Source: a virus
DNA: 64,000 nucleotides
Strand: one strand, 5' to 3'
Virus record (IMG/VR): IMGVR_UViG_3300030419_003648
Location: 35,883-99,882 of that record
In this document: positions 1,016 to 36,645 of the stretch, piece by piece
Layout: each line of letters opens with the position of its first letter
Position numbering within the stretch: position 1 is the first letter of the stretch
The notes under the pieces: model-generated
Database searches by the model: none
What the model was told of the DNA's origin: nothing
What the model saw: only the letters and a program-made list of their open reading frames with translations
Made by a program: the position numbers and the translations under genes

Positions 1016-2075
1016 TGCAGTATTAAAAAACATAAGCAAGAAGTATGGAAACATTTTGGTTAATGGCGCTGAGGTTTTTGAAGAACTGCGCGACATGCAA
1101 GTCATTCCGGTAAGTCCGTCACTAGACTATGCTCTAGGAGGGGGTTTCCGTGAGGGAACTTGGGTTCAAATGATTGGCGATCCAAAGTCTGGTAAAACTA
1201 CAACAGCGCTTCAATTTGCTGCGAACTGTCAAAAAAAGGAATATGGTGAAAGACCGATATTCTATGTCAATGTTGAAGGCAGATTGAGTACAAAAAACTT
1301 TGAAGGTGTTCATGGTTTAGATGCTAGTAAAATTACGGTTGTTCAATCTGAAGGAGAGCCTCTAAGTGCTGAGCAATATTTAGGAGCTGTAGAAAAATTA
1401 GTCAAAGCTCATCCAAAATGTGTTGTAATTATTGATTCAATATCTAGCTTGATAGCTCAAAAAGATTTAGACGAAGAAGTAAGAGGCGACTATAGGCCGG
1501 GAGTTCCTAAGATACTTTCTAATTTCTGTAAGAAGATGAGCAGTGTAGTTCCTAAGCAAAGGGCTGTAGTGATAATGATCACTCACTTTATTGCTAACAC
1601 TGGAGGAATGGGCAAGAAGAAAGTTGCAGATGGAGGCGTAAAGGTTCGCTATCAAGCAGACACTATTTTAGAGATTGCTTGGATTCAAGCGTGGAAAGAA
1701 AAAACTGACGGCAGGCAGATCGGACAGGCTTTGCATTGGAAAGTTGTCACTTCTGCTTTGGGTGGCTTTGTAGGCGCTGAGGCTATTGGCTGGCTTCGTT
1801 ATGGAATTGGTATTGATTACAAGCAAGAACTTTTTGACCAAGCAAATGACTTTGATTTAATCTCTGCTGCTGGAGCTTGGTATACTTGCGACTTTTTACT
1901 GGACAATACAAAGCCCATCAAAAAACTTTTGGAGGCAGAAGGTATAGACCCAGAAGACGAAGAGAAGCTTGCAAAGTTCGTTAAGTTTCAAGGACAACAA
2001 CGACTAAAAGACTTCTTAGACCAAAACGATCTTTGGCCTGCATTACAAGAGTCTTTGAAGGAGATGTTGTTTTGA
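1008..2075 (+). CDS. RecA/UvsX-like recombinase
   Basis: An ATP-dependent strand-exchange protein of the RecA/UvsX superfamily, 355 aa, close to typical length. Walker A is GDPKSGKTT at residues 57-65, preceded by the family-typical SPSLDYALGGGF. Walker B is CVVIIDS at 138-144 (Asp143). The Lys-rich GGMGKKKVADGG stretch further on resembles the DNA-binding loop region. Such proteins coat single-stranded DNA and drive recombination-dependent replication and repair in the cytoplasm. The gene sits at the front of the replication module; its stop codon overlaps the TTG start of the next gene (TTGA). A DnaB-type ATPase is the main alternative, but the motif spacing and the leader favour RecA/UvsX. 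Confidence 0.9.
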   Translation: MNNAVLKNISKKYGNILVNGAEVFEELRDMQVIPVSPSLDYALGGGFREGTWVQMIGDPKSGKTTTALQFAANCQKKEYGERPIFYVNVEGRLSTKNFEGVHGLDASKITVVQSEGEPLSAEQYLGAVEKLVKAHPKCVVIIDSISSLIAQKDLDEEVRGDYRPGVPKILSNFCKKMSSVVPKQRAVVIMITHFIANTGGMGKKKVADGGVKVRYQADTILEIAWIQAWKEKTDGRQIGQALHWKVVTSALGGFVGAEAIGWLRYGIGIDYKQELFDQANDFDLISAAGAWYTCDFLLDNTKPIKKLLEAEGIDPEDEEKLAKFVKFQGQQRLKDFLDQNDLWPALQESLKEMLF

Positions 2076-2494
2076 AGGCGTTAGGTTTTGATGGCCGTGA
2101 AAGAAATTGGAACCTGACAAAATGTGTTGTTATGGGGGATCAAAAAAGACCTCGAAGTAAATTGCATATTTTGGCAAGAAAGTTACTCCGTGAACAGTTT
2201 CCTTATGATACAATTCTTGAGGAAGTTCCACTTCCCGGCTCTCACAAGCCATCTAGGAAATCTACTTTGTATGTGGATTTTTTTGTACCTTCCTACTCTC
2301 TAGCCGTAGAGGTTCATGGTAGGCAGCATTTTGAGTTCGTCGCTCACTTTCATGGCAACAAGCAAGGATTCAGAAAATCCAAAGCTAGAGATCGTGACAA
2401 ATCAAATTGGCTCAAAAACAATGACATAGACTTAATCGTTCTAAGTTATTCAGGAACTGAAGATGAATGGAGAGAATCAATTATCAATAGATAA
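2072..2494 (+). CDS. VSR/EDxHD-like PD-(D/E)XK nuclease
   Basis: A 140-residue protein with a restriction-endonuclease-like core. YVDFFVPSYSLAVEVHG carries Asp69, Glu80 and His82, followed by His86, then a charged RDRDK helix (Asp107, Asp109, Lys110) and a final LIVLSY strand. This arrangement resembles very-short-patch-repair nucleases and the EDxHD homing nucleases known from phages. I chose the TTG start at 2072 because AAGGAG lies eight bases upstream and TTGA overlaps the recombinase stop; an upstream TTG at 2033 is also in frame but lacks such a site. It may be a repair or resolving nuclease, or a free-standing homing enzyme beside recA. It is related in plan to the nuclease at 35857. 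Confidence 0.7.
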   Translation: MKALGFDGRERNWNLTKCVVMGDQKRPRSKLHILARKLLREQFPYDTILEEVPLPGSHKPSRKSTLYVDFFVPSYSLAVEVHGRQHFEFVAHFHGNKQGFRKSKARDRDKSNWLKNNDIDLIVLSYSGTEDEWRESIINR

Positions 2495-2943: not shown

Positions 2944-3402
2944 ATGTCACCACTAGAACTTATAAAAAATGGAATTTTAGAAAATGATTTTCAAAAAGTT
3001 ATTCAAGGCTATGAAGCCCTCACAGGAGAAGACCTCTCTTCAATCAGAGGAGAAGATCCAACAACCTCAAGAGAAGAAAGCACCAGCGACCAATCAGAGG
3101 AAGTGCGGAGGCCACAAGTGCCGGTGCGGTCGTCGGAGTTAGACTTCACAGTCCAAAGAGATGAACTCCCGAATGGAAAGTTTGGAAGAAAAGAATCAAT
3201 ACAAGTAGGCGCAAATCAATTTGTGGATGATGGATCTGAGTCGCAGGGAAAAGAGTTTGATACTCCAAAAGTTGAACCAACCCCAAGACGAAGCCCAGTA
3301 AAAATGATAGAAGTTGTTTGCAACGCATGTGGAGCTAAGGAAGAGATAAATCCAAAATATAAAACTGGTAGCTATCATCGTTGCGGGAAGTGTGTAGGTT
3401 AA
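2944..3402 (+). CDS. Protein with disordered middle and C-terminal zinc ribbon
   Basis: A 152-residue protein in three parts: a short N-terminal helix (residues 1-35), a long low-complexity linker rich in Glu, Ser, Thr and Pro (about 36-118) that is probably disordered, and a C-terminal zinc-ribbon-like unit with CNAC and CGKC pairs (EVVCNACGAKEE ... YHRCGKCVG). Zinc ribbons of this size usually bind nucleic acid or a polymerase partner. It ends in a TAATG junction with the helicase gene, suggesting it may help helicase or primase loading; that role is inference and no known loader family is recognised. Confidence 0.7.
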   Translation: MSPLELIKNGILENDFQKVIQGYEALTGEDLSSIRGEDPTTSREESTSDQSEEVRRPQVPVRSSELDFTVQRDELPNGKFGRKESIQVGANQFVDDGSESQGKEFDTPKVEPTPRRSPVKMIEVVCNACGAKEEINPKYKTGSYHRCGKCVG

Positions 3403-4880
3403 TGGAAAATTTAAAAGATTTAGTAGCAGAAAAGTCTGTTTTGGCTGGAGTAATTCAGCACGGCGAAGAAGTATATTACGATATAAAACATGTTGTTAAG
3501 GTGTCATCTTTTACAGAAGAAGATAATATCGTATTGTGGACAACGCTGGAGAGGTTATTTGATTCATCTGAGTCAGTTGACTATCCAACCCTGTGTACAA
3601 ATGCCCCATCTCTTGAGATGTTTAGCAAGTATATACCGAAGGAAAAGTACAACAAACTACGGAATACGGAAATAAGCCTTAAGAACACAAAGCTGGCAGC
3701 GGCTAGAGTTTTTAAGTTTGAAGCCGCTAGAGAAGCATACGCTGCCACTGTTGAAATGCAAAGAAAGCTAAAATCTATTGAGGGAAAAGAATCTGTCAGT
3801 GAAATAGTTGGACTTGTTGAGCGTGAAGCTTTTTCAATTTCCGATAAGCTCGATGACAAACTAGATTCAAAGCCAGAGCTAATTGGTGATGATGTTATGG
3901 AACATATCCAGCATCTAAGAGACAATCCATCTGAAATGATTGGCATTAGTAGTGGCTTCACTAGATTTGATGATGCTATTGGCGGTGGTTTTCGCAGCGG
4001 TAATGTTGATTTAATAGCCGCAAGAACAAAAGTTGGTAAGAGTATGTTTGCTGACGCAGTAGCTCTGCATGTAGCTGGAGTGCTAAAAATACCAGTATTG
4101 TACTTAGATACTGAGATGCAGAAAAAAGACCACCAAAGAAGAATGCTTGCAAGCTTGAGTAACATTAAAACTAAGGATATTGAAACCTCCAAGTTTAATG
4201 AGTCTCAAGGTATGAATGAAAGAATTGATAAAGCAGGTCTCAAGATAAAGGACATGCCTTATCACTTTAAGAATATTGCCGGAAAAAAGTTTGAAGAAAC
4301 AGAGTCTTTGATAAGAAGATGGATCATCAAAGATGTCGGCTTTAACGAACAAGGTGAAACAAATCCTTGTTTAGTTATATACGATTACTTCAAGCTCACC
4401 ACTTCTTCAGACATGGACAACCTAAAAGAGTTTCAAGCTCTTGGCTACCAAATGCAAGACATGGTTAATCTTACGATTGAATACAATTTCCCTTGCTTGA
4501 GTTTTGTTCAAACTAATAGAGATGGCGAGACTAAAGAAACTCTAGAGACTATCAGTCAGTCAGATAGGCTCTCATGGTTTGCGAGTAGTATTACGATCTT
4601 CAAGAAAAAATCATCTGATGAAATGGCTGAAGATGCAGGTGCTAGTGGGAATAGAAAGTTAATACCAGTTGCTTCAAGGTATGGTGGTGGACTGGAAGAC
4701 TTTGATTATATCAATGTAAATCTTTTTGGAGACTACTCTAGAGTTGAAGAGGGGCTGACTAAAAATGAACTAGTCCTAGCCTCTAAAAAACAAAAAGAGG
4801 GATTTGAAAATACAGTTGGCGATGAACAACAAGAGTTCAAGCCAGAAAAAGAAATTGAAGATGAAGGAAAACCATTTTGA
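3402..4880 (+). CDS. DnaB-like replicative DNA helicase
   Basis: A RecA-fold hexameric helicase of the DnaB/gp41 type that unwinds DNA at the replication fork. The C-terminal ATPase begins with GISSGFTRFDDAIGGGF and carries Walker A ARTKVGKS at residues 207-214 and a Walker B strand CLVIYDY ending at Asp328. The N-terminal 170 residues are helical, as in the DnaB primase-binding domain. The preferred start is ATG 3402, overlapping the upstream stop (TAATG); an in-frame TTG at 3381 would add seven residues but is less likely. The length of 492 aa is normal for the family. The primase gene follows at once with a TGATG overlap, matching the usual helicase-primase partnership. Confidence 0.9.
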   Translation: MENLKDLVAEKSVLAGVIQHGEEVYYDIKHVVKVSSFTEEDNIVLWTTLERLFDSSESVDYPTLCTNAPSLEMFSKYIPKEKYNKLRNTEISLKNTKLAAARVFKFEAAREAYAATVEMQRKLKSIEGKESVSEIVGLVEREAFSISDKLDDKLDSKPELIGDDVMEHIQHLRDNPSEMIGISSGFTRFDDAIGGGFRSGNVDLIAARTKVGKSMFADAVALHVAGVLKIPVLYLDTEMQKKDHQRRMLASLSNIKTKDIETSKFNESQGMNERIDKAGLKIKDMPYHFKNIAGKKFEETESLIRRWIIKDVGFNEQGETNPCLVIYDYFKLTTSSDMDNLKEFQALGYQMQDMVNLTIEYNFPCLSFVQTNRDGETKETLETISQSDRLSWFASSITIFKKKSSDEMAEDAGASGNRKLIPVASRYGGGLEDFDYINVNLFGDYSRVEEGLTKNELVLASKKQKEGFENTVGDEQQEFKPEKEIEDEGKPF

Positions 4881-5956
4881 TGGCAAAAAAGAGAACTAAC
4901 GAACAGTTAAAAAGACTGTCTGACGAATTAGCTCTTAAACCGGAAAAGTTGCACCCTATTGGAATATTCATCTCTGAGACTGGGCATTTGCCCTGCCCAA
5001 TTCATGGAGGTGATAATCCTCAAGGTTGTTCAGTGGTTCTAGATCCAGACAGTCCTTACTTTGGCACTTACACCTGCTGGACTGGAAACAAAGAAACTGG
5101 TCGCAAGTGCCACGAAGTTTATAGAAACTCAATGATTGGCTTGGTCAGAGGGAAATTGTCATATGATGCTGGTCATGATGTTGGGTTCAACAAAGCCTTT
5201 GAAGTGTGCTTGAAACTTGTAGACTTGGACGAAGACTACCTAAGAAAAAATGCAACTAAGTTCAAAGCTCTTAGCGAACAAGAAAAGATTGACAGGATAA
5301 AAGAAAAAAAAGAAGAAAGGCTCAAACAAGCAAATCATAGAGAGCTGGTCAGAAAGAGCTTGAAGATGCCTTCAAAATATTTTGTTGACAGAGGGTACTC
5401 AGAAAAGGTCTTAGACTATTTCGACATAGGGACATCTAATCATCCTAAAAGCACCATGAAAGGACGCTCGATTGTGCCTGTGTATGACGACGATGAACCT
5501 TTGATGGTAGGTTTTTTAGGAAGATGGAATGGTGATGATTATGACGAAAGAGGAGTTCCAAAATGGAAAAACAATTATGGATTTGCTAAGAGTCAATATC
5601 TTTATGGGTTTTATCAGAACAAAGAAGATATAGTAAGAACAAAGACGGTAGTTTTAGTCGAGGGGCAAGGCGACGTATGGAGGTTATGGGAAGCTGGTAT
5701 CAGAAATGCAGTTGGGCTGTTTGGAACTAGCTTATCAGCCGCTCAGTTATTCACATTAAGAACTGCATGTATAGTTAACCTAGTCGTTATACTTGATAAT
5801 GATCCGGCAGGAATCATCGCTAGAGAAAAAATCAACACAACCTGTAGTAACATATTCAATATCATCAATATTGAAACAAGTAGTAACGATGTTGGCGATA
5901 TGACAATCCAAGAAATTAATGAACAAATAAAACCCAATCTTGAAGGACTCATTTAA
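4880..5956 (+). CDS. DnaG-like DNA primase
   Basis: A 358-residue primase that makes RNA primers for lagging-strand synthesis. The N-terminus holds a likely zinc site: C39-P-I-H42, then Cys66 and Cys77 in a strand pair ending KCHEVY. After a Lys-rich helical linker, the catalytic TOPRIM domain shows VLVEGQGD at 259-265 (Glu261) and ILDNDPAG with Asp306 and Asp308, the acidic residues that bind metal in DnaG-type primases. It is shorter than bacterial DnaG, as usual for phage primases, and lacks the DnaB-binding tail. The ATG at 4880 overlaps the helicase stop (TGATG), so the pair is translationally coupled. Confidence 0.88.
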   Translation: MAKKRTNEQLKRLSDELALKPEKLHPIGIFISETGHLPCPIHGGDNPQGCSVVLDPDSPYFGTYTCWTGNKETGRKCHEVYRNSMIGLVRGKLSYDAGHDVGFNKAFEVCLKLVDLDEDYLRKNATKFKALSEQEKIDRIKEKKEERLKQANHRELVRKSLKMPSKYFVDRGYSEKVLDYFDIGTSNHPKSTMKGRSIVPVYDDDEPLMVGFLGRWNGDDYDERGVPKWKNNYGFAKSQYLYGFYQNKEDIVRTKTVVLVEGQGDVWRLWEAGIRNAVGLFGTSLSAAQLFTLRTACIVNLVVILDNDPAGIIAREKINTTCSNIFNIINIETSSNDVGDMTIQEINEQIKPNLEGLI

Positions 5957-6714: not shown

Positions 6715-7298
6715 GAATAGACTGGGATGACAGAATGGTAACTCGCGCCCAGAATAAAGCCAAAAAACTAGGCAAAATAAAGAATTCAATCCTGAGAGGT
6801 GGTGGCAATGCCGCTGGATACTTAGGGGAAGAAGCTGTCGCGTCCTACATCGGGGCAAATATCACTAGCTGTGACAAAGGATCGGATAAATACGATTACG
6901 ATATTGTTGCTAGAGATGGCCGTAGGATAGAAATCAAAACTAAAAGAAGAACTGTTTCTTGTATTGATGGCGATGGAAATGATCGAGGCAACTACGAAGT
7001 GTCAGTTGCCAAGACTAGCGTTCATCAAAGACCAGACCTATACATTTTCGTTAATATTCATTTTGAATTAATCGAATACAACTTCGTTAATGGTCGAAAA
7101 GTGAAGCAGTACAAGAAGATTAAAAACATTGAAATACTAGGTCAGATGGAGCCGGAAGATTATTTCGCTGAGGCTTGGCTAGTACAAAAAGGCGATCATG
7201 ACCCTAGCAATGATTTTACAGCGCACGCAGATATGTACAATCTCTATATAAAAGATTTGGAACCGTTAGATGATAGTTTGTTACCACAGGAGCAGTAG
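6693..7298 (+). CDS. PD-(D/E)XK nuclease-like protein
   Basis: A 201-residue protein with the core of a PD-(D/E)XK nuclease: GYLGEEAVASYIG (Glu46/47) followed by KYDYDIVARDGRRIEIKTKR, where Asp68/Asp70 and the E80-x-K82 pair would bind metal. This resembles phage and restriction-type endonucleases that cut or trim DNA. ATG 6693 is preferred because AAGGGAG at 6681-6687 sits five bases upstream; a GTG at 6687 is also in frame. It overlaps the kinase gene by 22 bases and the next nuclease gene by 29. A role in recombination, host-DNA breakdown or Holliday-junction processing is possible; substrate is unknown. Confidence 0.7.
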   Translation: MATNKIVRIDWDDRMVTRAQNKAKKLGKIKNSILRGGGNAAGYLGEEAVASYIGANITSCDKGSDKYDYDIVARDGRRIEIKTKRRTVSCIDGDGNDRGNYEVSVAKTSVHQRPDLYIFVNIHFELIEYNFVNGRKVKQYKKIKNIEILGQMEPEDYFAEAWLVQKGDHDPSNDFTAHADMYNLYIKDLEPLDDSLLPQEQ

Positions 7299-8292
7299 TC
7301 TTGGAACATTAGAGTTCTGTCAGCAAAAATACTTTTTGCAGTATAACCTTTCGTTCAAAGATAAGACCAATCCAAAAGCCTTAATGGGTACGATTACCCA
7401 TAAGGTGATGCAGACTCTTGGAGACAAGAAAGTTGCAATGAACAAAGGTCTTGACATCGTAGAAGACGAAGAAACAGGAAGGAACCTAACGCTAGAAGAA
7501 TGTGACGATCTTGAACTTCTCAACAACATAGCGTTTGACTATTACACTAACGCCTTTCCAGAAGTAAAGATTGGTGACAAAGAAAGAAGGCAATGTCTTC
7601 GCTGGGCTGAAAAAGCGATAGCTTTTAAAGACGGAATGCTAGACCCTAGAAACCAAGATGTATTTGCTACTGAACTCTTTTTTGACATCGAGATAAAGAA
7701 GCCTTGGGCTAAATACAAATATGAGTTTGAAGATCAAACAATCGAAGGCTATTTATCTATTAAGGGAACTGTTGACCTTATATTAGATCAGGGCAATGGC
7801 TTCTTTGAAATACTTGATTATAAAACTGGAAGACGTTTGGATTGGGCTACCGGAGAAGAAAAGACTTACGAAAAGCTACAAAAAGATAAACAGCTTTTGC
7901 TTTATTATTACGCTCTGAAGAATATGTATCCTGACAAAGAATTTTCAGTAAGTATATATTATATCAACGACGGTGGATTATTTTCTATGGTCTTTGACGA
8001 AGAAGACTATGAGGATGCGGAAGAGATACTTCGTAAAAAATTTGAACAAATAAGAAGTATACAACAACCAAGACTACTATCAAATGAACATACTCACTGG
8101 AAGTGTCAAAAGCTATGCCTGTTTAGCAGTGAGTATGAGGATAGCGGAAAAAGTATATGTCAGCATATACGAGACGAAGTTAAAGAAAAGGGTGTAGTCA
8201 AAGTAGTTGAAGAATATGGCAAAATTGACAAGATCGCCACGTATGGAGATGGCGGCGGAAGATTGGCAGACGATAGCGATAGCAAAAAATGA
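7270..8292 (+). CDS. RecB/Cas4-family exonuclease with probable Fe-S cluster
   Basis: A 340-residue PD-(D/E)XK exonuclease of the RecB/Cas4/AddB group. The N-terminus has a Ser-rich start and C17 in EFCQQKYFLQY, then GTITH with His44. The catalytic core is GTVDLI (Asp169) and EILDYKTGR (Asp183-x-Lys185), followed by a Gln-containing helix (KDKQLLLYYYAL). Cys279, Cys283 and Cys297 near the C-terminus, together with Cys17, make the four-Cys pattern that holds a 4Fe-4S cluster in Cas4 and AddB; the last spacing is longer than usual. It probably processes DNA ends for RecA-type recombination. The stop overlaps the polymerase start in ATGA. There is no CRISPR array here, so this is not a CRISPR adaptation gene. 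Confidence 0.8.
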   Translation: MIVCYHRSSSLGTLEFCQQKYFLQYNLSFKDKTNPKALMGTITHKVMQTLGDKKVAMNKGLDIVEDEETGRNLTLEECDDLELLNNIAFDYYTNAFPEVKIGDKERRQCLRWAEKAIAFKDGMLDPRNQDVFATELFFDIEIKKPWAKYKYEFEDQTIEGYLSIKGTVDLILDQGNGFFEILDYKTGRRLDWATGEEKTYEKLQKDKQLLLYYYALKNMYPDKEFSVSIYYINDGGLFSMVFDEEDYEDAEEILRKKFEQIRSIQQPRLLSNEHTHWKCQKLCLFSSEYEDSGKSICQHIRDEVKEKGVVKVVEEYGKIDKIATYGDGGGRLADDSDSKK

Positions 8293-10211
8293 ATTGGACA
8301 CCTTTACACCTGCATAGCCATTACAGCCTCCTAGACGGCCTCTCAAAGCCTTCTCAGATAGCTTCTCGGTGTGCGAACCTTGGTTTTGAATCTTGCGCTC
8401 TAACGGATCACGGGACGATCTCTGGCGCTGTCGCATTTTCTAAAGCAATGAGGCAAAAGAATATCAAGCCAATACTCGGTTGTGAGTTCTACCTAAGCCA
8501 GCAAGATTGCACGGTTAAGTCCGAAGAAAATAGAAAACTGAGTCATCTCTGTGTCATTGCAAAGAATAAGAAAGGTTGGGGTCAGCTTATACAGGCGACT
8601 TCAAGAAGTAACGATGAAGAAAATTTCTATTATAAGCCTCGTCTTGATCTTGATACTCTAGGTCAATACGCAGATGGAAACTTGATAGCTTTTAGCGGAC
8701 ATCTTGGAAGTGATTTAGCAAATGTGATTTTCACTGATATTAAATCTGGTTATCAGGCTACAACTTTAGATGAGTTCAAAAGGTATACTCATGCTGACTG
8801 GCCTGAGAGAGTTTCCAAGTTAGCTCATAGGTATCGAGATATATTTGGTAAAGATAATTTCTTCCTTGAAGTGCAATCAATAGACCAAGAGAATTCCATT
8901 GCAGCTAAGATGGTCGCTGAAGGAATGAGATATGTAGCGAATAAATACGACTTCAGAACTGTAGCTACAGCTGACTCTCACTACCCTGAACAAAAAGATG
9001 CAGGAGATCAACTTCTACTTCTCTGCTCAGCGATGAGAACAACCCTTAGAGGTGTGAAAAAGAAAATCCAAGCCAATGAAGATGTGGCATTTTCTGGCTT
9101 TATGAAGTCAACAAATTTTCATATTCCAACATTAGAAGAAATACAATCAGTCAATTCGTCAAAAGAGATTGATACTTCTATGGAAATAGCGAGTATGTGC
9201 GAAGACTACGACATACTCGGCCAACCTATGCTCCCAGAATTTGAATGTCCTGAAAATAAATCAGAAGAAGCGCATCTAAGACAGTTGTGCCGTGATGGTT
9301 GGCGCGATAAGCTGTCTGGAATTTTGACAAAAGATCAAAAGAACGAATACACCGAAAGAATTAAAAAAGAACTTGATGTCATAAGCAGTGCTAAACTGTC
9401 TGGCTACTTCCTTATTGTCAGAGATATAGTTAACAGTGTCAGGTCTAGAAATCATATACCCGGTCCGGGAAGAGGTTCTGCTGCTGGATGCTTAGTTTCT
9501 TATCTGATTGGGATTACACAATTAGACCCTATCAGATACGGTTTAATCTTTGAACGCTTTTATAACGCAGGAAGAAATACAGGTGGGCATGTATCGCTTC
9601 CAGATATTGATATTGACGTTCCAGCTACTAAACGAGACGAAACTATAGACTATATCAGAAGTAAATATGGTAATGATCGTGTTGGTCAAATGGTCACGTT
9701 TGGAAGGCTTCAAGGTAGAAGCGCGTTAAAAGAAGTTCTTAGAATGAATGACGCTTGTAGTTATGACGAAATGAACGCTATCACTAAAAGCCTTCCTCAC
9801 GAACACGAAGTGTCTGATCAATTAGCTGAAATGGACGAACCGTCTGTAATTCAATGGACGTTAATGAATCAGCCGGATTCACTGAAAGATTATTGCCGAT
9901 TAAATGACGATGGTAATCTTGAAGGCGACTACGCCAAATTATTTGCGCAGGCCATGCGTATAGAAGGCACATTTAAATCACAAGGAAAACACGCCGCTGG
10001 AGTCGTGATCTCTTCCCATAAACTAGATGAAGTTTGTCCAATGGTTAGAGATAAGAAAGGCGCTGAGAAGATAGCAGGGCTTGAAATGAACGACCTAGAA
10101 GCAATGGGACATGTAAAGTTTGACATTTTAGGAATTTCCCTAATGGACAAAATCATGGGGATCAGAGATAAATTGGAGGAGGACGATGACCAAGAAAACT
10201 TGGAAAGATAA
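8289..10211 (+). CDS. DNA polymerase III alpha subunit, N-terminal half (split gene)
   Basis: The first half of a bacterial-type replicative polymerase (DnaE family), 640 aa. The PHP domain opens with HLHSHYSLLDG (His7, His9, His11). The palm has PGPGRGSAAG at 391-400 and PDIDID with Asp439 and Asp441, matching E. coli D401 and D403. The third catalytic Asp is Asp612 in HVKFDILG, matching D555. The protein then stops about 28 residues later, before the fingers. The rest of the polymerase is the separate gene at 11065-12657, after a 72-aa gene and an exonuclease gene. All three catalytic Asp are therefore on this half, but it should need the other half to bind template and nucleotide. Start ATG overlaps the upstream stop. 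Confidence 0.9.
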   Translation: MNWTPLHLHSHYSLLDGLSKPSQIASRCANLGFESCALTDHGTISGAVAFSKAMRQKNIKPILGCEFYLSQQDCTVKSEENRKLSHLCVIAKNKKGWGQLIQATSRSNDEENFYYKPRLDLDTLGQYADGNLIAFSGHLGSDLANVIFTDIKSGYQATTLDEFKRYTHADWPERVSKLAHRYRDIFGKDNFFLEVQSIDQENSIAAKMVAEGMRYVANKYDFRTVATADSHYPEQKDAGDQLLLLCSAMRTTLRGVKKKIQANEDVAFSGFMKSTNFHIPTLEEIQSVNSSKEIDTSMEIASMCEDYDILGQPMLPEFECPENKSEEAHLRQLCRDGWRDKLSGILTKDQKNEYTERIKKELDVISSAKLSGYFLIVRDIVNSVRSRNHIPGPGRGSAAGCLVSYLIGITQLDPIRYGLIFERFYNAGRNTGGHVSLPDIDIDVPATKRDETIDYIRSKYGNDRVGQMVTFGRLQGRSALKEVLRMNDACSYDEMNAITKSLPHEHEVSDQLAEMDEPSVIQWTLMNQPDSLKDYCRLNDDGNLEGDYAKLFAQAMRIEGTFKSQGKHAAGVVISSHKLDEVCPMVRDKKGAEKIAGLEMNDLEAMGHVKFDILGISLMDKIMGIRDKLEEDDDQENLER

Positions 10212-10404
10212 AATTCGGGACAAAATTCAAAACGGAAGATACGAAGAATACAAAGGTCTTTCCATTTGCAAAATAAACGATTTCTACCAACCAATGAACC
10301 GGAAGGTAAGATACCAAGTCCACTCGTATCGTTTCAGCGGACTTTTTGAAGATATTGAAGAAGCATTGGATAAATTTTTTGAGATTAAGAGGAAAATAAG
10401 ATGA
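10186..10404 (+). CDS. Small basic protein, possible AP2-like DNA-binding fold
   Basis: A 72-residue basic protein between the two halves of the polymerase. After a Lys-rich leader it shows three short strands (GLSICKI, VRYQVHSY, RFSGLFE) and one helix (DIEEALDKFFEIKRKIR). This three-strand-plus-helix plan resembles small AP2/integrase-N-terminal DNA-binding domains and the 49-aa protein at 20047; the likeness is by eye only. ATG 10186 is preceded by GGAGGAGG at 10175-10182, one of the strongest ribosome-binding sites in the window, embedded in the end of the polymerase half. It ends in an ATGA overlap with the exonuclease. Confidence 0.6.
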   Translation: MTKKTWKDKIRDKIQNGRYEEYKGLSICKINDFYQPMNRKVRYQVHSYRFSGLFEDIEEALDKFFEIKRKIR

Positions 10405-11081
10405 ATTACAAAGACATTATTGTTTTTGACTTTGAAACAGGTTCTAGGAATCCGCACAAAACACAACCAGTCCAGATCGCAGCTGTAGCGATTCACGGAA
10501 GAAAGCTGACCATTCAGCCTGACGGAGAGTTTAACAGTCTTATCAGGCCAGTGCTGGACGATGAAGAGGCCATAAAGCTAGGATTAGACCCTATTGAAGA
10601 CGAAGCCTTAGCTGTGAATGGAAAGACCAGAGAAGAGCTTGCCAAAGCTCCTCAACCAAAAGTGGTTTGGGATAAGTTTGCAAATTTTGTAAACAGGTAC
10701 AATTTCAAAAAAACACCTTATTATGCCCCAATCGCTGCTGGATACAACATAATCGGCTTCGATCTGCCGATAGTACAAAGGATGTGTGAAAAATATGGGC
10801 CAGTTGACAAGAAAACTGGTCAGCAAACACTCTTCAATAAAATTCACAAAGTTGATATGCTTGATATTGTCTGGATGTGGATGGAGAATAATGCCGATGT
10901 TAAATCTCTGAGCATGGATTCAATGCGTGATTTACTAGGTATGTCTAAAGAAAATGCGCATGACGCTTTGCAGGACGTTAAGGATACAGCTTTGATGATG
11001 ATATCCTTCATGAAATTCCACCGAAAAATTGCACCAAAAGTAAAATTTGAGAAAGCCTTTGCAGATGGCCGAGACTTTTAA
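10401..11081 (+). CDS. DnaQ-like 3'-5' exonuclease (proofreading), nested in the split polymerase
   Basis: A 226-residue DEDDh exonuclease. Exo I is IIVFDFETGS with Asp10 and Glu12; Exo II is YNIIGFDLPIV with Asp121; Exo III is AHDALQDVKDT with His187 and Asp192. This is the fold of the E. coli epsilon subunit and of T7/T4-type proofreading domains, so the product most likely removes mismatched nucleotides for the phage polymerase. The gene lies exactly between the two polymerase halves, starting in an ATGA overlap with the 72-aa gene and overlapping the second half by 17 bases. Co-translation would favour assembly of the three polypeptides. A DEDDh RNase such as RNase T is an alternative. 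Confidence 0.85.
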   Translation: MNYKDIIVFDFETGSRNPHKTQPVQIAAVAIHGRKLTIQPDGEFNSLIRPVLDDEEAIKLGLDPIEDEALAVNGKTREELAKAPQPKVVWDKFANFVNRYNFKKTPYYAPIAAGYNIIGFDLPIVQRMCEKYGPVDKKTGQQTLFNKIHKVDMLDIVWMWMENNADVKSLSMDSMRDLLGMSKENAHDALQDVKDTALMMISFMKFHRKIAPKVKFEKAFADGRDF

Positions 11082-12657
11082 TTTAATTGAAGATGATAGC
11101 TTTGCCGACGAAGCTACTTGGGACTTAATATGCTCAGGAAAGACTAAAGGTGTTTTCCAACTAGAAAGCAACTTGGGTAAGTCTTGGGCAAAAAGAGTCA
11201 AACCAAGAAACATTGAAGAACTAGCAGCCCTGCTGTCAATAATAAGACCCGGAACATTGAAGGCTATACAAGATGGCAAATCAATGACCCAAAGGTTTGT
11301 TGATAGGAAAAATGGGTCTGAAAAGATTACTTACCCACACCCATCTTTAGAGCCTATACTCAAAACAACCCAAGGGGTTCTTGTGTATCAAGAGCAGTCT
11401 ATGCAGATTGCTCAAATGCTTGCTGGTTTTGATCTTCAAGAGGCAGATAACCTTCGTAAAGCAATCGGTAAGAAAAAAGCCGATCTAATGGCGAAAGTCA
11501 AAAAGGCATTTCTAGCTGGAGCTATTAAAGAGGGGATTGTTGATAAGGACACCGCTGAGGAAATCTTCAGTTGGATTGAGAAGTCCAGTCGTTACGCATT
11601 TAATAAGTCTCATGCGGTTTCGTATGCAGTATGTGCTTATTGGAGCGCTTTTTGTAAAGCTCATCACCAACTAGAATTTTACTGCAATTATTTGATCTAC
11701 TCTTCAGGCAAGCCAGACCCTCATCAAGAAGTCAGAGAGCTTGTCAACGATGCAAAGAATAATGAAATCTATATCAGCCCTCCATCAATAAAGAGCTTAA
11801 ATGTTCAGACTGACATAATTGATGGCCGTATACATTTCGGCATGTCTAATGTTAAGTCTATTGGCGTAAAGCATATAGAAAAATTCAAATCAATAATTAA
11901 AGAAGTAGAAGAGCAGATAAACAAACCATTCATTGAATGGTCTTGGTATGATTTTTTGGTCTTGGCTTCGCAAAAGGTCAATAGGCCGGTGGTGATCGCT
12001 TTATGTTCGATTGGATTCTTTTCGCATTTGCCAGAGACCAGAACGGAAATGTTAGATAGGTTCCACACTTGGGGTCAACTTACTAAAAAGGAACAAGAGT
12101 GGGCGGTCGAAAACCATTCCAAATTTACCTGCATTGAAAAGATATTGAGCAAAATGGTTCCTGTCAAGAAAGAGGGCGGAGCTACATTCAATAAAAAGCG
12201 CTCTGACATGCTGCGCGACCTTTTGAACGAAATGCAGAATCCATCAAGTCCAATGTCTGACTCTAGACGGTGGGTTATACAAGAAGAAGAAAGGTACTTA
12301 GGGGTAGCTTTAACATACTCTAGAATTGAAGCCTGCAACACGAACCTAGCAAATACCACGATCAAAGAGTTTTTAGATGGTAAGCGAGGCGACATTAAAA
12401 TGGCTGTTACCATTTCCGATGTCAAAAAATGGGTAACTAAAAACGGTAAGATGAAAGGTTCTGAAATGGCATTTCTTTGTGTAGAAGATACCACTGGAAC
12501 TTTAGACACGGTAACAGTGTTTTCTGACCAGTGGCAAGAGAACAAAGGTATACTGTATACTGGTAACAATGTTATAATTTCTGGCACATCATCGAAAGAC
12601 AAAAGACGACAAATTGACGATGGTTTCATTGTCAACAGCGTTATAGAATTAAGTTGA
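11065..12657 (+). CDS. DNA polymerase III alpha subunit, C-terminal half (split gene)
   Basis: The second half of the DnaE-family polymerase, 530 aa from ATG 11065; an upstream in-frame TTG at 11047 would add six residues. It opens where E. coli DnaE reads PLDIAAIPLDD and soon reaches GVFQLES, YQEQSMQIAQMLAGF, RKAIGKKK and YAFNKSH, the fingers and nucleotide-binding motifs. Further on is a helix-hairpin-like region (VKSIGVKHIEKF) and a C-terminal OB-fold segment. The beta-clamp motif is not obvious. The two halves together total 1170 residues, close to intact DnaE (1160), and no conserved block seems lost at the join. No intein motifs are visible. The gene's stop lies inside the -35 box of the ssb promoter. 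Confidence 0.9.
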   Translation: MAETFNLIEDDSFADEATWDLICSGKTKGVFQLESNLGKSWAKRVKPRNIEELAALLSIIRPGTLKAIQDGKSMTQRFVDRKNGSEKITYPHPSLEPILKTTQGVLVYQEQSMQIAQMLAGFDLQEADNLRKAIGKKKADLMAKVKKAFLAGAIKEGIVDKDTAEEIFSWIEKSSRYAFNKSHAVSYAVCAYWSAFCKAHHQLEFYCNYLIYSSGKPDPHQEVRELVNDAKNNEIYISPPSIKSLNVQTDIIDGRIHFGMSNVKSIGVKHIEKFKSIIKEVEEQINKPFIEWSWYDFLVLASQKVNRPVVIALCSIGFFSHLPETRTEMLDRFHTWGQLTKKEQEWAVENHSKFTCIEKILSKMVPVKKEGGATFNKKRSDMLRDLLNEMQNPSSPMSDSRRWVIQEEERYLGVALTYSRIEACNTNLANTTIKEFLDGKRGDIKMAVTISDVKKWVTKNGKMKGSEMAFLCVEDTTGTLDTVTVFSDQWQENKGILYTGNNVIISGTSSKDKRRQIDDGFIVNSVIELS

Positions 12658-12682
12658 CGAAAATCAAAAAGAACAGTATGAT
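12654..12682 (+). promoter_or_regulatory. Sigma70-type promoter for ssb and downstream genes
   Basis: TTGACG (12654-12659) and TATGAT (12677-12682) are separated by 17 bases, an almost consensus host sigma70 promoter. The -35 box contains the stop codon of the polymerase C-terminal half, and the 57-base gap before ssb is the largest gap on the plus strand upstream of the terminator. Transcription would start near 12689 and read ssb, the sigma factor and probably the sugar locus. A GAGGGAAAG ribosome-binding site precedes the ssb ATG at 12715. Confidence 0.7.
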
Positions 12683-12714
12683 ATTTGTATCGTATTGCAA
12701 TTTAGAGGGAAAGT

Positions 12715-13071
12715 ATGAATACAATTTCTAATTATTGCCGCTTTATAGGACGGTTAGTTCAAGATCCAAAGACTGTAAAATTTGAAAATACGGAGCTTTG
12801 CACTTTTACGCTAGCTGTCACTGAGTACAGAAGAGAAAAAGATGGCAACAAAAAAAAGAATGTCAATTTTTTTGACTTTGAAGCATGGGACTCTGGCGGT
12901 TCAACTATTCAAAAACACTGTAGTAAAGGCGACATAATTGATTTGGTGGCATCTGCCAGAAACAATTCTTGGACAGATAAGGATGGTAAGAAAAGATTCT
13001 CAACAAAGTTCAGAGTCAAAGAATTCAAACTCTTTGGAAATCAGCAAAAGCAAAAAACTGAAAAAAGCTGA
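12715..13071 (+). CDS. ssb: Single-stranded DNA-binding protein
   Basis: A 118-residue OB-fold protein of the bacterial SSB family: NYCRFIGRLVQDPKTV, ELCTFTLAVTEYRREKDG, NFFDFEAWDSGG and DIIDLVASARNNSWTDKDGK appear in the family order. It coats exposed single strands at the replication fork and during recombination. It lacks the long linker and acidic DDDIPF-type tail of bacterial SSBs and ends instead in a basic QKQKTEKS, so it may not recruit partners through the classic tail. It has its own promoter and a good ribosome-binding site, fitting the high amounts needed. The sigma factor gene overlaps its end. Confidence 0.88.
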   Translation: MNTISNYCRFIGRLVQDPKTVKFENTELCTFTLAVTEYRREKDGNKKKNVNFFDFEAWDSGGSTIQKHCSKGDIIDLVASARNNSWTDKDGKKRFSTKFRVKEFKLFGNQQKQKTEKS

Positions 13072-13561
13072 AAAAGAAAAACTGAAAACACAAAAAGAGC
13101 TTGAAGAAGAACTAGTTCATGAACACTATGGGTTAGTTGTGTCTCAGGCTCTTTCTTTTTTCTATAGCTCATACTTTGATGACTATATTCAAGCCGGTCT
13201 AATAGGACTACTCAAGGCTATAAGAAACTACAATAGCGACAAATCAAAGTTCAGCACCTTTGCAACAGTTTGCATACGCAACGAAATGGTGACTTTTGAT
13301 AGAAAAATAAAGAAGAAAAGCTTCAGCAACATAGTCTTTGACACAGAGAACATTGAAATCTTTGTGAAAGATAAAAACAAAGAACCTTTACCAAAAGACT
13401 GGCTTCCTAATTCACTTACAGAAGAAGACAGGTTTATAATAGAATTAAAACTACAAAATTATACTAACAAAGAAATATGTAGTTTTTTGAGCTGCTCAAA
13501 GTATGTACTTTCTAACAAGATAAAAAATATTTCAGCAAAAGTAAAAGAGCATAACAAATGA
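13034..13561 (+). CDS. Phage RNA polymerase sigma factor (sigma70-like, regions 2 and 4)
   Basis: A 175-residue protein resembling small alternative or phage sigma factors. Region 2 is visible as VVSQALSFFYSSYFDDYIQ and AGLIGLLKAIRNYNSDKS, followed by FSTFATVCIRNEMV, the pattern that contacts core polymerase and the -10 element. A C-terminal helix-turn-helix (DRFIIELKLQNYTNKEICSFL) fits region 4. It could redirect host RNA polymerase to late phage promoters such as those for the minus-strand virion genes. The start is uncertain: I prefer TTG 13034, but ATG 12983 and TTG 12938, both inside ssb, are in frame. The stop overlaps the next ATG (ATGA). Confidence 0.72.
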   Translation: MEISKSKKLKKAEKEKLKTQKELEEELVHEHYGLVVSQALSFFYSSYFDDYIQAGLIGLLKAIRNYNSDKSKFSTFATVCIRNEMVTFDRKIKKKSFSNIVFDTENIEIFVKDKNKEPLPKDWLPNSLTEEDRFIIELKLQNYTNKEICSFLSCSKYVLSNKIKNISAKVKEHNK

Positions 13562-15192
13562 GAAAGAAGAGAATACTTTTTTGCGGAGAGGCTACATATC
13601 TAAACACTGGATATGCTACCTATGGTAGAGAAGTTCTCAAGAGGCTTCACTCTACTGGCAAGTATGAGATAGCAGAATTTGCTAGTTACGGCTCAGAAAA
13701 AGATCCTAGATGCTCTACCATTCCGTGGACTTTCTATGGCAACATGCCAGACCCTAACGACAAGGCTCAAATGCAAGAGTATGAGTCTATACCAACAAAT
13801 CAATTTGGTGAGTGGAGATTTGAAGCTGTCTTGTTAGATTTTCTTCCTGATATTGTTTTTGATATCAGGGACTTTTGGATGTTCGACTACCAAAATAGAT
13901 CTCCATTTAGAAATTATTTTAATTGGACTATTATGCCAACTGTTGATGCGGCTCCACAAAATGAGCAATGGTTGGACACTTTTATAAGTGCCGATGCTGT
14001 ATTCAATTATTCAGATTGGGGTTGGGACGTAATAAACAAAGAGTCTAATGGAAAAATAAACTGCTTAGGATCAGCACCTCCTTCTGCCGACTCTGCTTAT
14101 CAACCAGTAGAAGACAAAGCCGAACACAAAGAATCTATGGGGTTCACAAAAGATACCAAGATAATTGGTACTGTGATGAGAAACCAAAGAAGAAAGCTGT
14201 TTCCAGACTTGTTTGAAGCGTTTAGAAAATTTCTAGACAATTCTGGAAGAACAGATGTCTTGCTTTATTGTCATACAAGCTATCCTGATTTGGGATGGGA
14301 TATACCAAAACTGCTTTTGAAATATAAGCTTTCGTCAAAAGTTTTATTCACTTACGTTTGCAACAACTGTGGACATACTTTTCCGTCATTCTTTTCAGAC
14401 GCAAGAAGAAAATGCCCAAAATGTGGACAATTTGCAGCTGGCCTTTCAAGCGTACAAAAGGGAGCGTCTTACGAATATTTATCAAGCATAATGAATTTAT
14501 TTGACTTGTACGTTCAATATGCAAACAGTGAAGGGTTCGGTCTTCCTCAAGTCGAAGCTGCGGCTTGTGGAGTTCCCGTAATGAGCGTTGACTACTCAGC
14601 CATGAGCAGCGTTGTAAGAAAGTTAGATGGCTTTCCAGTAAAACCTAAAGCCCTGTACAACGAAGTTGAAACTGGTTGCAATAGAGCCGTTCCAGATAAT
14701 GACCATGCAGCTGAACAAATGCAAAAGTTCTTCGATATGACGGATGCAGAGCAGCAAACATTGTCAAAAAATACTAGATTGAACTTTGAAAAATATTACC
14801 AGTGGGACAAGACTGCTAAAAAATGGGAAGACTATTTTGATTCAGTAGAAATCAGACCTATTGAACAAACATGGAAATCTCCCCCAAGAATACACCAACC
14901 CTCAAACACAATACCTCAAAACCTTTCACCAGCACAATTTGCTAAGTGGCTTATAACAGATGTCTTAGGCGAGCCAGAAAGATTGAATACATATTTTGAG
15001 TCTAGGCTGTTAAGAGACTTAAATTATGGAATGTACATTCAGGGTACAGGAGAAATGTATTTGAATGAGGATTCTTATAAGTTCATAAAGCCCGTATATG
15101 AAAAGTTTGAAAAGCAAGAAGCTTACAACATGATGGTAGGATTATGCAACCGACGCAATCAATGGGAAGCAGCTAGGAGTAAACTTCAATGA
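13558..15192 (+). CDS. GT-B glycosyltransferase with inserted zinc ribbon
   Basis: A 544-residue family-4-like glycosyltransferase: N-terminal Rossmann domain beginning RILFCGEATYLNTGYA, and the C-terminal donor-binding motif NSEGFGLPQVEAAACGVPV with the E-x7-E pair starting at Glu325. Between strands of the C-terminal domain lies a zinc ribbon with CNNC (268, 271) and CPKC (286, 289), unusual for this enzyme class. A further 130 residues follow the GT fold and may bind a partner. It opens the sugar locus, starting in an ATGA overlap with the sigma gene and ending in another with the next glycosyltransferase. Donor and acceptor are unknown. Confidence 0.82.
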   Translation: MRKKRILFCGEATYLNTGYATYGREVLKRLHSTGKYEIAEFASYGSEKDPRCSTIPWTFYGNMPDPNDKAQMQEYESIPTNQFGEWRFEAVLLDFLPDIVFDIRDFWMFDYQNRSPFRNYFNWTIMPTVDAAPQNEQWLDTFISADAVFNYSDWGWDVINKESNGKINCLGSAPPSADSAYQPVEDKAEHKESMGFTKDTKIIGTVMRNQRRKLFPDLFEAFRKFLDNSGRTDVLLYCHTSYPDLGWDIPKLLLKYKLSSKVLFTYVCNNCGHTFPSFFSDARRKCPKCGQFAAGLSSVQKGASYEYLSSIMNLFDLYVQYANSEGFGLPQVEAAACGVPVMSVDYSAMSSVVRKLDGFPVKPKALYNEVETGCNRAVPDNDHAAEQMQKFFDMTDAEQQTLSKNTRLNFEKYYQWDKTAKKWEDYFDSVEIRPIEQTWKSPPRIHQPSNTIPQNLSPAQFAKWLITDVLGEPERLNTYFESRLLRDLNYGMYIQGTGEMYLNEDSYKFIKPVYEKFEKQEAYNMMVGLCNRRNQWEAARSKLQ

Positions 15193-35401: not shown

Positions 35402-35885
35402 CCAAATAGGAGTAGTCATTGATGAGTTAACAGCTAGTCAGCTAGCATTTGATATCATAAACAATTTCAACGAAGAACTAGATAAAACCAAAGACGACTA
35501 CGTTGTCTTTTTTGAAAATTCAACTTCTTCAATTGTTAATCCAAGATTCTCCACTATGGCTATGAATGAGCTTTGGAGTTTTCATGGTGTTTTGATAGCA
35601 ACTTCTGTTTCTAGTGCCTTGTCGATGATAAAAGCTTTTAGCCCTGCTAAGAAAATATTCTATGTATGGGATTTAGAATGGACGAGAAGGCATGGAAAAA
35701 GTTTTGAGGACAATGTAGAAGCATTTGTCAACGAAGAAGTTCTACTTGTTGCTAGAAGTAAAAGCCATGCAAAAGCAATAGAAAACTATTGCAATAAAAA
35801 GGTAGACCATGTCGTACAAAATTTTAATATAGAAAATTTCAAAAGGATAATAGAAAATGAGCAGTGCGTTCATAAACAAGCATAA
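35388..35885 (+). CDS. Hypothetical protein, 165 aa
   Basis: A soluble 165-residue protein of unknown family. The start ATG 35388 is preceded by GAGAGG in the end of the SDR gene. It has a Rossmann-like pattern (IGVVIDELTASQLAFDIIN, then YVVFFENSTSS, GVLIATSVSSALSM and KIFYVWDLEWTRR) and may be a glycosyltransferase-like half-domain. The last part is EVLLVARSKSHAKAIENYC. It closes the sugar locus and overlaps the next nuclease gene by 29 bases. No function is assigned. Confidence 0.65.
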   Translation: MQKTNQIGVVIDELTASQLAFDIINNFNEELDKTKDDYVVFFENSTSSIVNPRFSTMAMNELWSFHGVLIATSVSSALSMIKAFSPAKKIFYVWDLEWTRRHGKSFEDNVEAFVNEEVLLVARSKSHAKAIENYCNKKVDHVVQNFNIENFKRIIENEQCVHKQA

Positions 35886-36645
35886 AGAATACATCATTGA
35901 GCAGTATGTAGATGAAGAAAAGAGTACATACGAAATAGCTCAAGAGCTTAAGACCTACCCAAATAAAATCAGAAGGGCGTTAAACACTTTAGGAGTGCCT
36001 TTAAGGGATAAAAGTGCGGCTCAGACTGTAGCTATTAACAGCGGTAGGCATGAACATCCAACTAGAGGAAAGAAAAGAACTGAAGCAGAAAAAGTGGCTA
36101 TCAGTAATGGAATGGCTAGCTATTGGGATGAAATGGAAGATGACGAACGTAAAAGACGTTCAGAACTTTCAAAGAAGCAATGGGCAGAAATGTCTGATGC
36201 GGATAAGGCAAATCTCAGAAAATTAGCGGCTGAAGCCGTAAGAAAAGCCAGTAAAGAAGGGTCTAAAATTGAAAAATTCGTATATGAGGGTTTGACAGCT
36301 TTAGGTTATCAGGTTATCTTTCATAAGAGAGGATTAATCCCTAATGACAAACTTGAAGTAGATCTGTTTCTTCCAGAAATAAAAACAGCTATTGAGATTG
36401 ATGGGCCAGCTCATTTCTTGCCGATCTGGGGTCAAGAAAATTTAGAACGTCACATCAGAGCAGATGCACAAAAAGCAGGTCTTCTAATTAACAGAGGATT
36501 TGTCGTCTTACGAGTGAAAAACGTAATTCGCAATTTGTCCTCTAAAAACATGAGAGATGCGCTTGAGGCCATTGTCATTGAGCTGAAAAAAATACAGAAA
36601 AAGTTCCCTGTTCCGTCAAAAAGACTTATTGAAATAGAAACCTAA
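35857..36645 (+). CDS. HTH protein with EDxHD/VSR-like nuclease domain
   Basis: A 262-residue protein with an N-terminal helix-turn-helix (TYEIAQELKTYPNKIRRAL, residues 24-42) and a Lys/Arg-rich middle (residues 70-135) that would bind DNA. The C-terminus is a PD-(D/E)XK core of VSR type: KLEVDLFLPEIKTAIEIDG with Glu167, Asp169, Glu180 and Asp182, then His186 and Asp203/Lys206, and a final GFVVLRVKN strand. This pattern matches the EDxHD homing endonucleases of phages. It may be a free-standing homing nuclease. The gene at 2072 carries a similar core without the HTH. Confidence 0.75.
   Translation: MSSAFINKHKEYIIEQYVDEEKSTYEIAQELKTYPNKIRRALNTLGVPLRDKSAAQTVAINSGRHEHPTRGKKRTEAEKVAISNGMASYWDEMEDDERKRRSELSKKQWAEMSDADKANLRKLAAEAVRKASKEGSKIEKFVYEGLTALGYQVIFHKRGLIPNDKLEVDLFLPEIKTAIEIDGPAHFLPIWGQENLERHIRADAQKAGLLINRGFVVLRVKNVIRNLSSKNMRDALEAIVIELKKIQKKFPVPSKRLIEIET

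What the first reader, a model, noticed from the sequence alone, without database searches (positions are those of the whole stretch)
8289..12657. DNA polymerase III alpha split into two genes with proofreading exonuclease nested between them
Sequence: the N half has the PHP domain and all three catalytic Asp (Asp439, Asp441, Asp612), then ends about 28 residues later; the C half opens where intact DnaE enters the fingers. Between them are a 72-aa gene and a DEDDh exonuclease gene. The halves sum to 1170 residues, near intact DnaE. No conserved block seems missing at the join. Known: cyanobacterial DnaE is split, but at a different site (near FNKSH) and by an intein; none is visible here. Inference: the polymerase works as a two-part enzyme with its own exonuclease, which may be an undescribed arrangement.
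Basis: partly seen in the sequence, partly recalled or inferred. Interest (0 to 1): 0.88.

Follow-up and report, generated by a model that had tools for sequence, protein, structure and literature searches.

The report
Phage DNA polymerase III in two pieces
An uncultivated lineage of tailed phages makes its DNA-copying enzyme as two separate proteins that must fit together, with the gene for a proofreading enzyme sitting between the two halves; this is a stable arrangement shared by more than 150 distinct relatives, not an assembly error.

Summary
The window (64 kb of a 99.9-kb virus contig) encodes a bacterial-type DnaE in two genes: a PHP+palm half (640 aa, all three catalytic Asp) and a fingers+HhH+OB half (530 aa). 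A 72-aa gene and a DEDDh exonuclease gene lie between them. The cut falls in the palm-fingers linker (Taq ~636/642) and no core block is lost; only the C-terminal tau-binding region is absent.

It is not an artefact. I found 156 distinct N/C pairs in environmental phage contigs, all cut at this linker, 153 with the exonuclease between; no intact member turned up inside the clade. The halves sit in all three relative frames, with no intein, intron or frameshift at the cut. Selection is purifying (dN/dS <=0.04). A joint AlphaFold model docks palm and C half (pTM 0.71). Three deep members carry the split without this exonuclease between, so fission probably came first.

Best reading: a permanent two-subunit Pol III alpha, assembled without covalent joining. 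Phages with split polymerases are known (T4-like gp43A/B; a minimal split Pol III alpha in jumbo phages; isolate phiT1, independently split here), so this is a new variant. Biochemistry is untested.

The parts
8289..10211 (+). DnaE N half, 640 aa: PHP domain (9 metal-ligand positions intact) + palm/thumb
   Evidence: Pfam PF02811, PF07733; PHP ligands HHDHEHHDH; invariant residues in A1
9603..9611 (+). catalytic Asp439 and Asp441 (PDIDID motif)
   Evidence: invariant in 22 sequences
10122..10124 (+). catalytic Asp612 (KFDILG motif), 28 residues before the N-half stop
   Evidence: invariant in 22 sequences
10175..10182 (+). Shine-Dalgarno-like GGAGGAGG inside the end of the N half, 3 nt before the 72-aa gene's ATG (10186)
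   Evidence: sequence
10186..10404 (+). 72-aa conserved small gene, function unknown; predicted helix - 4 strands - helix; homologues in many relatives, absent from others
   Evidence: no Pfam/PHROG match; alignment A4; AlphaFold pLDDT 87; no PDB fold match; dN 0 vs L002
10401..11081 (+). DEDDh 3'-5' exonuclease, 226 aa, start overlaps the small gene's stop (ATGA)
   Evidence: Pfam RNase_T, PHROG 192 'DNA polymerase exonuclease subunit'; D10, E12, D121, H187, D192 invariant; nearest solved relative PolC exonuclease 2p1j
11065..12657 (+). DnaE C half, 530 aa: fingers + HhH + OB; own start codon inside the exonuclease's 3' end (alternative TTG 11047)
   Evidence: Pfam PF17657, PF14579; PDB mapping Taq 642-958 and OB
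11599..11613 (+). FNKSH motif (cyanobacterial DnaE intein site), uninterrupted here
   Evidence: sequence; invariant or nearly so in A2; intein-occupied in L052, L118, L288
12715..13071 (+). SSB gene next to the C half (replication module context)
   Evidence: Pfam SSB
7270..8292 (+). PD-(D/E)XK Cas4-like nuclease upstream, overlaps the N-half start; same neighbour in nearly all relatives long enough to show it
   Evidence: Pfam PDDEXK_1; synteny
3381..5956 (+). DnaB-like helicase (3381-4880) and primase (4877-5956) of the same replication module
   Evidence: PHROGs 19 and 47

Best explanation
The two genes encode the two subunits of one C-family (DnaE-type) replicative polymerase that has been permanently split between palm and fingers. 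The PHP+palm subunit brings the catalytic aspartates; the fingers+HhH+OB subunit brings the incoming-nucleotide and template contacts. They are translated separately from one overlapping gene run and assemble without a covalent join into a DnaE-like enzyme. The DEDDh exonuclease made from the gene between them most likely serves as its proofreader (epsilon-like). Shown computationally: the conserved split, integrity of both halves, absence of a recognisable splicing element, purifying selection. Inferred: physical assembly, polymerase activity, proofreading partnership, and that fission came before the exonuclease moved in.
For: 156 distinct N/C protein pairs split at one linker (N tail 12-40 aa after KFDxLG; C head about 46 aa median before TKGxFQLE), 153 with the exonuclease between; no intact viral member in the clade. 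Split clade is one side of a branch in N and C trees (SH-aLRT 99 on the N tree), separate from intact cellular and phage DnaE; N and C patristic distances correlate, r 0.88. Catalytic and DEDDh residues invariant. Both halves map end to end on Taq/E. coli DnaE. dN/dS 0.00-0.04. N and C lie in all three relative frames, 18/49/42, and the intervening cargo varies, so no frameshift or conserved intron joins them. Read-through model of palm + nonsense linker + C half (L035): pTM 0.71 with about 25% of residues uninformative, near the ceiling if palm and C half are placed together; the best PDB matches are all DnaE. No PolA or PolB found on the contig, so this is its only recognised polymerase. Precedent: split gp43A/B of Aeromonas phage 25 co-purify and polymerise; split NrdA of Aeh1 is fully active (PMC2988022).
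Against: No biochemical evidence. AlphaFold has seen intact DnaE, the halves were given as one tethered chain, and Foldseek TM-scores were only 0.42-0.53 with large rmsd, so docking is supported, not proven. The exonuclease is not required at this site: L201, L286 and L288 lack it between the halves. The contig may be incomplete, so another polymerase could be missed.
Confidence: 0.84

Rival explanations
1. The halves are joined after all: by RNA splicing of an intron that carries the small gene and the exonuclease, by protein trans-splicing, or by frameshifting.
For: Phage polymerase genes do carry introns and inteins; L052, L118 and L288 have inteins at FNK|SH and L288 also in the palm. Bacillus phage KLEB27-3 DnaE is interrupted inside FQ(I)E|S by a stretch with an HNH gene, as an intron would do.
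Against: No Rfam intron at E<=1 in 7000-13600, nor in five relatives and isolates at gathering score (that search also missed any intron in KLEB27-3, so Rfam's silence is weak evidence). No intein residues at the ends of either half. Relative frame N/C is 0/1/2 in 18/49/42 pairs. Cargo ranges from 2 nt to about 4 kb and differs between lineages, so no conserved ribozyme can be there. In L286 the halves abut, with a Shine-Dalgarno sequence before the C half.
Confidence: 0.05
2. Assembly or sequencing error, or a decaying pseudogene.
For: Single-contig observation at first; L262 shows that broken frames do occur in MAG DnaE genes.
Against: 156 distinct pairs from many independent metagenomes; strong purifying selection; all catalytic residues kept.
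Confidence: 0.01
3. The exonuclease and small gene are passengers in an insertion hotspot between two polymerase genes; proofreading is done by the PHP site or a host protein and the exonuclease serves another task (host DNA degradation, recombination). The polymerase itself is still two-part in this reading.
For: The gap also holds HNH-type ORFs, uracil-DNA glycosylase, methyltransferases, an RCC1-like gene and a SIS-domain gene in relatives. L201, L286 and L288 have no exonuclease there, while the L286 contig and the L201 genome bin carry a different DEDDh gene elsewhere. PHP metal ligands are intact in the window.
Against: The exonuclease alone is kept in 153/156 pairs, and its DEDDh residues stay invariant in relatives whose PHP site is lost (L045, L054, L097, L098, L118), as expected of the main proofreader. 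Its top PHROG is 'DNA polymerase exonuclease subunit'.
Confidence: 0.25
4. One half is used alone (for example the N half as a PHP nuclease or nucleotidyltransferase) and another polymerase copies the genome.
For: Host Pol III could in principle replicate the phage.
Against: Neither half is complete without the other in known C-family structures. Both are always found together (except where contigs end) and under similar constraint. No other polymerase was found on the contig.
Confidence: 0.05

Closest known systems
Cellular DnaE (Taq 2hpi, E. coli 5fku) with separate epsilon (DnaQ)
   Same: Domain order, catalytic triad, PHP ligands, fingers, HhH, OB; separate DEDDh proofreader
   Different: One polypeptide in cells; the phage version is two genes cut at the palm-fingers linker and lacks the tau-binding end
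Cyanobacterial split DnaE (split intein)
   Same: DnaE encoded as two ORFs
   Different: Cut at FNKSH and rejoined by trans-splicing; here cut about 180 residues earlier, no intein (but relatives L052, L118, L288 carry inteins at that FNKSH site)
Split gp43A/gp43B of T4-like Aeromonas phages and split NrdA of Aeh1 (PMC2988022)
   Same: Essential phage enzyme permanently in two polypeptides that reassemble
   Different: Family-B polymerase or RNR; interrupted by a homing endonuclease or untranslated sequence, not by a conserved exonuclease gene
Minimal split Pol III alpha of group 2.2 jumbo phages (PMC7824862)
   Same: Pol III alpha in two proteins, predicted to reconstitute
   Different: Minimal core without other Pol III domains, distant genes, alongside a family-B polymerase; here near-full length, adjacent genes, no PolB found
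Rossellomorea phage phiT1 gp20/gp19/gp18 (PV767480.1)
   Same: Two DnaE genes cut at the same palm-fingers linker with a 49-aa ORF between
   Different: Separate origin on the tree, no exonuclease between, single record found

Membership tests
C-family DNA polymerase, DnaE type | PHP domain followed by Pol-beta-like palm with three catalytic Asp | tested here: met
C-family DNA polymerase, DnaE type | fingers, HhH and OB domains | tested here: met
   (in the second gene)
C-family DNA polymerase, DnaE type | single polypeptide | tested here: not met
C-family DNA polymerase, DnaE type | C-terminal tau-binding domain (cellular replicases) | tested here: not met
   C profile ends near E. coli residue 1058
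C-family DNA polymerase, DnaE type | polymerase activity of the assembled halves | not testable with these tools
   needs protein
Epsilon/DnaQ-like proofreading exonuclease | DEDDh catalytic residues | tested here: met
   D10, E12, D121, H187, D192 invariant; RNase_T
Epsilon/DnaQ-like proofreading exonuclease | binds the polymerase PHP domain and clamp | not testable with these tools
   no complex prediction available
Split-intein DnaE (cyanobacterial) | cut at FNK|SH with intein halves on each ORF | tested here: not met
   FNKSH intact; no intein residues at the ends
Homing-endonuclease-split phage gene (Aeh1 nrdA, gp43 type) | one gene divided into two ORFs, both kept | tested here: met
Homing-endonuclease-split phage gene (Aeh1 nrdA, gp43 type) | homing endonuclease gene in the gap | tested here: not met
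   None in the window gap; HNH-type ORFs in the gap of relatives L052, L054, L057 by eye; Pfam found only HTH parts in L052 and L054
Minimal split Pol III alpha of jumbo phages | lacks PHP and other domains; distant genes; PolB present | tested here: not met
   PHP present, genes adjacent, no PolB found
Group I/II intron | ribozyme core between the exons | tested here: not met
   No Rfam match at E<=1 for an intron in 7000-13600

The most novel reading that the evidence does not exclude
The palm-fingers cut is functional rather than merely tolerated: the nested exonuclease and/or 72-aa protein act as assembly or switching factors that hold or release the fingers subunit, so that the polymerase opens between synthesis and proofreading by subunit exchange.
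Probability: 0.15. Interest if true: 0.85.

Novelty: new variant of a known kind. Interest (0 to 1): 0.62.

Why it matters
It shows that a whole phage lineage, not a single mutant, uses a replicative Pol III alpha cut through the junction between catalytic palm and fingers, and it gives natural, compatible halves to test how C-family polymerases are built and proofread. It also gives a graded series (abutting halves, other cargo, exonuclease, exonuclease + small gene) for how a gene is split and how a partner gene moves in, and naturally split polymerase parts could be useful tools.

Tried and rejected
(1) Assembly error: rejected by 156 distinct pairs. (2) Intein, intron or frameshift at the cut: no support. 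(3) The small protein as theta (HolE): its predicted fold is helix - 4 strands - helix and no PDB match was significant. (4) A search for close viral relatives of the deep member L201 found none; an alignment of deep members found L286 and L288. (5) An intact sister inside the clade: none found; the only intact viral locus fetched from IMG/VR, L121, is a distant long branch. (6) The KLEB27-3 'split' is not the same thing: it lies inside the FQ(I)ES motif with an HNH gene; an intron is likely but Rfam did not call one. (7) Literature: searches on split DnaE, split polymerases and fractured genes found no description of this clade; the library holds open-access papers only.

Full report
What is there. 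The window is bases 35883-99882 of a 99,882-base IMG/VR virus contig. Its left part is a replication module on the + strand: UvsX/RecA-like recombinase, DnaB-like helicase, primase, dNMP kinase, PD-(D/E)XK nuclease, the DnaE N half, a 72-aa gene, a DEDDh exonuclease, the DnaE C half, SSB, then a sigma-factor-like gene. The genes from the nuclease to the C half overlap by 4 to 26 bases, with Shine-Dalgarno-like sequence before the 72-aa gene, as in a translationally coupled run.

Where the cut lies. Profiles from relatives were aligned to solved structures. The N half covers Taq DnaE residues 6-636 and the C half covers 642-958 plus the OB fold (E. coli 584-903 and 947-1058). The cut therefore falls in the linker between the end of the palm and the fingers. 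No conserved core block is lost; the tau-binding end of cellular DnaE is missing.

It is real and old. Searches of IMG/VR with each half and with alignments and of GTDB genomes gave over 350 loci, many of them overlapping stretches of the same contigs. Classifying them with N, C and exonuclease profiles gave 156 distinct N/C protein pairs split at this same place, 153 with the exonuclease between the halves. The N halves of the first 109 pairs plus the window form 26 clusters at 70% and 6 at 50% identity. Cellular DnaE loci fetched with the same query were almost all intact, which shows that the method would have seen intact genes. On quick maximum-likelihood trees the split phages form one group for the N half (SH-aLRT 99) and one for the C half. 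N and C distances correlate (r 0.88). Against the nearest relative dN/dS is 0.041 (N), 0 (small), 0 (exonuclease) and 0.022 (C).

Not spliced, as far as can be seen. The N and C frames stand in all three relations (18/49/42 pairs), no intein sequence sits at the cut, and no Rfam intron is present. The gap is a site where genes come and go: HNH-type ORFs, uracil-DNA glycosylase, TylF and FkbM methyltransferases, a SIS-domain gene, an RCC1-like gene. In the deep member L286 the two genes abut with 2 bases between stop and start and their own ribosome-binding site. In L201 the gap holds a DUF4326 gene and a macro-like gene, and in L288 a gene that looks restriction-enzyme-like by eye. A different DEDDh gene lies elsewhere on the L286 contig and in the L201 genome bin. 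L201 branches at the base of the clade; L286 and L288 are its relatives but were not placed on the tree. The simplest inference is that fission came first and the exonuclease, then in part of the clade the small gene, moved in later; loss in the basal lineage is not excluded.

Can the halves fit? Only single chains can be modelled here. In L035 the N and C halves share a frame, so reading through gave palm + about 300 nonsense residues + C half in one chain. AlphaFold gave mean pLDDT 75 and pTM 0.71 with the linker mostly below 50. If the palm and C half were placed independently I estimate pTM would be near 0.45, so 0.71 suggests joint placement; this is my estimate, not a control. Foldseek's first 14 PDB matches are all DnaE chains, E 1e-25 or better, but with TM 0.4-0.5 and large rmsd, partly because the PHP domain was left out and the linker is nonsense. 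I count this as support, not proof.

Proofreading. DEDDh residues are invariant in 22 sequences. PHP metal-ligand positions are intact in the window and in 17 of the 22 aligned N halves, but lost in L045, L054, L097, L098 and L118, all of which keep the exonuclease. That fits the exonuclease being the main proofreader, but binding was not tested.

Comparison with the known. The best functional parallels are split gp43A/B and split NrdA of T4-like phages, which are active as two chains (PMC2988022). A minimal split Pol III alpha has been described in group 2.2 jumbo phages (PMC7824862): distant genes, no other Pol III domains, and a family-B polymerase present; none of these holds here. Among isolates, Rossellomorea phage phiT1 has an independent split at the same linker, annotated but, as far as I could find, not discussed. 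The best matches to the N half in the phage collection are about 34% identical, well below the identities inside the main clade, so the clade appears to have no sequenced isolate there. I file it as a new variant of a known kind: a split phage polymerase.

Limits. No experiment; contigs may be incomplete; the literature library is open-access only; the host is unknown.

Noticed in passing
L052:11018-13850: The C half is itself split again at FNK|SH by a split intein with a free-standing endonuclease-like ORF (weak DUF559 hit, 11851-12759) between the intein halves: a DnaE in three ORFs, at the cyanobacterial DnaE intein site.
   Followed up: partly
L118:6965-8950: Contiguous mini-intein at the same FN|SH site in the C half.
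   Followed up: partly
L288:5989-9237 and 9927-11906: Inteins in both halves: one in the palm GRG|SAAG motif (large insert of about 400 aa), one at FNK|SH.
   Followed up: partly
C-half N termini, e.g. L093:6896-8539, L103:6914-8536: About half of the relatives (51 of 109) carry an N-terminal CGC motif on the C half, nearly always with a further Cys just before TW: a possible zinc knuckle added exactly at the cut. Absent in the window.
   Followed up: partly
L045, L054, L097, L098, L118 N halves: PHP metal-ligand residues lost and (except L097) the PHP domain shortened, while the exonuclease is kept.
   Followed up: yes
OM634661.1 gp166/gp165/gp164 (L285): Bacillus phage KLEB27-3 DnaE interrupted inside the FQ(I)ES motif by a stretch with an HNH gene; looks like an intron but Rfam found none.
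   Followed up: partly
L279:12685-13941 and L280:4746-6005 (contig bases outside the window): DUF1501 and membrane-dipeptidase (M19) genes on the same virus contig; DUF1501 is typical of Planctomycetota (own knowledge), a host hint.
   Followed up: no
window 13558-35401: Run of about 20 glycosyltransferase, epimerase and related sugar genes between the replication module and the tail genes; two of them also follow the split polymerase in deep members L201 and L286.
   Followed up: no
window 2033-2494 and 35857-36645: Two HNH/homing endonuclease-like genes in the window, the first overlapping the end of the UvsX-like gene.
   Followed up: no
L199, L200, L201: Phage contigs with the split DnaE binned into MAGs labelled Flavobacteriales and Lokiarchaeota; probably binning errors.
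   Followed up: no
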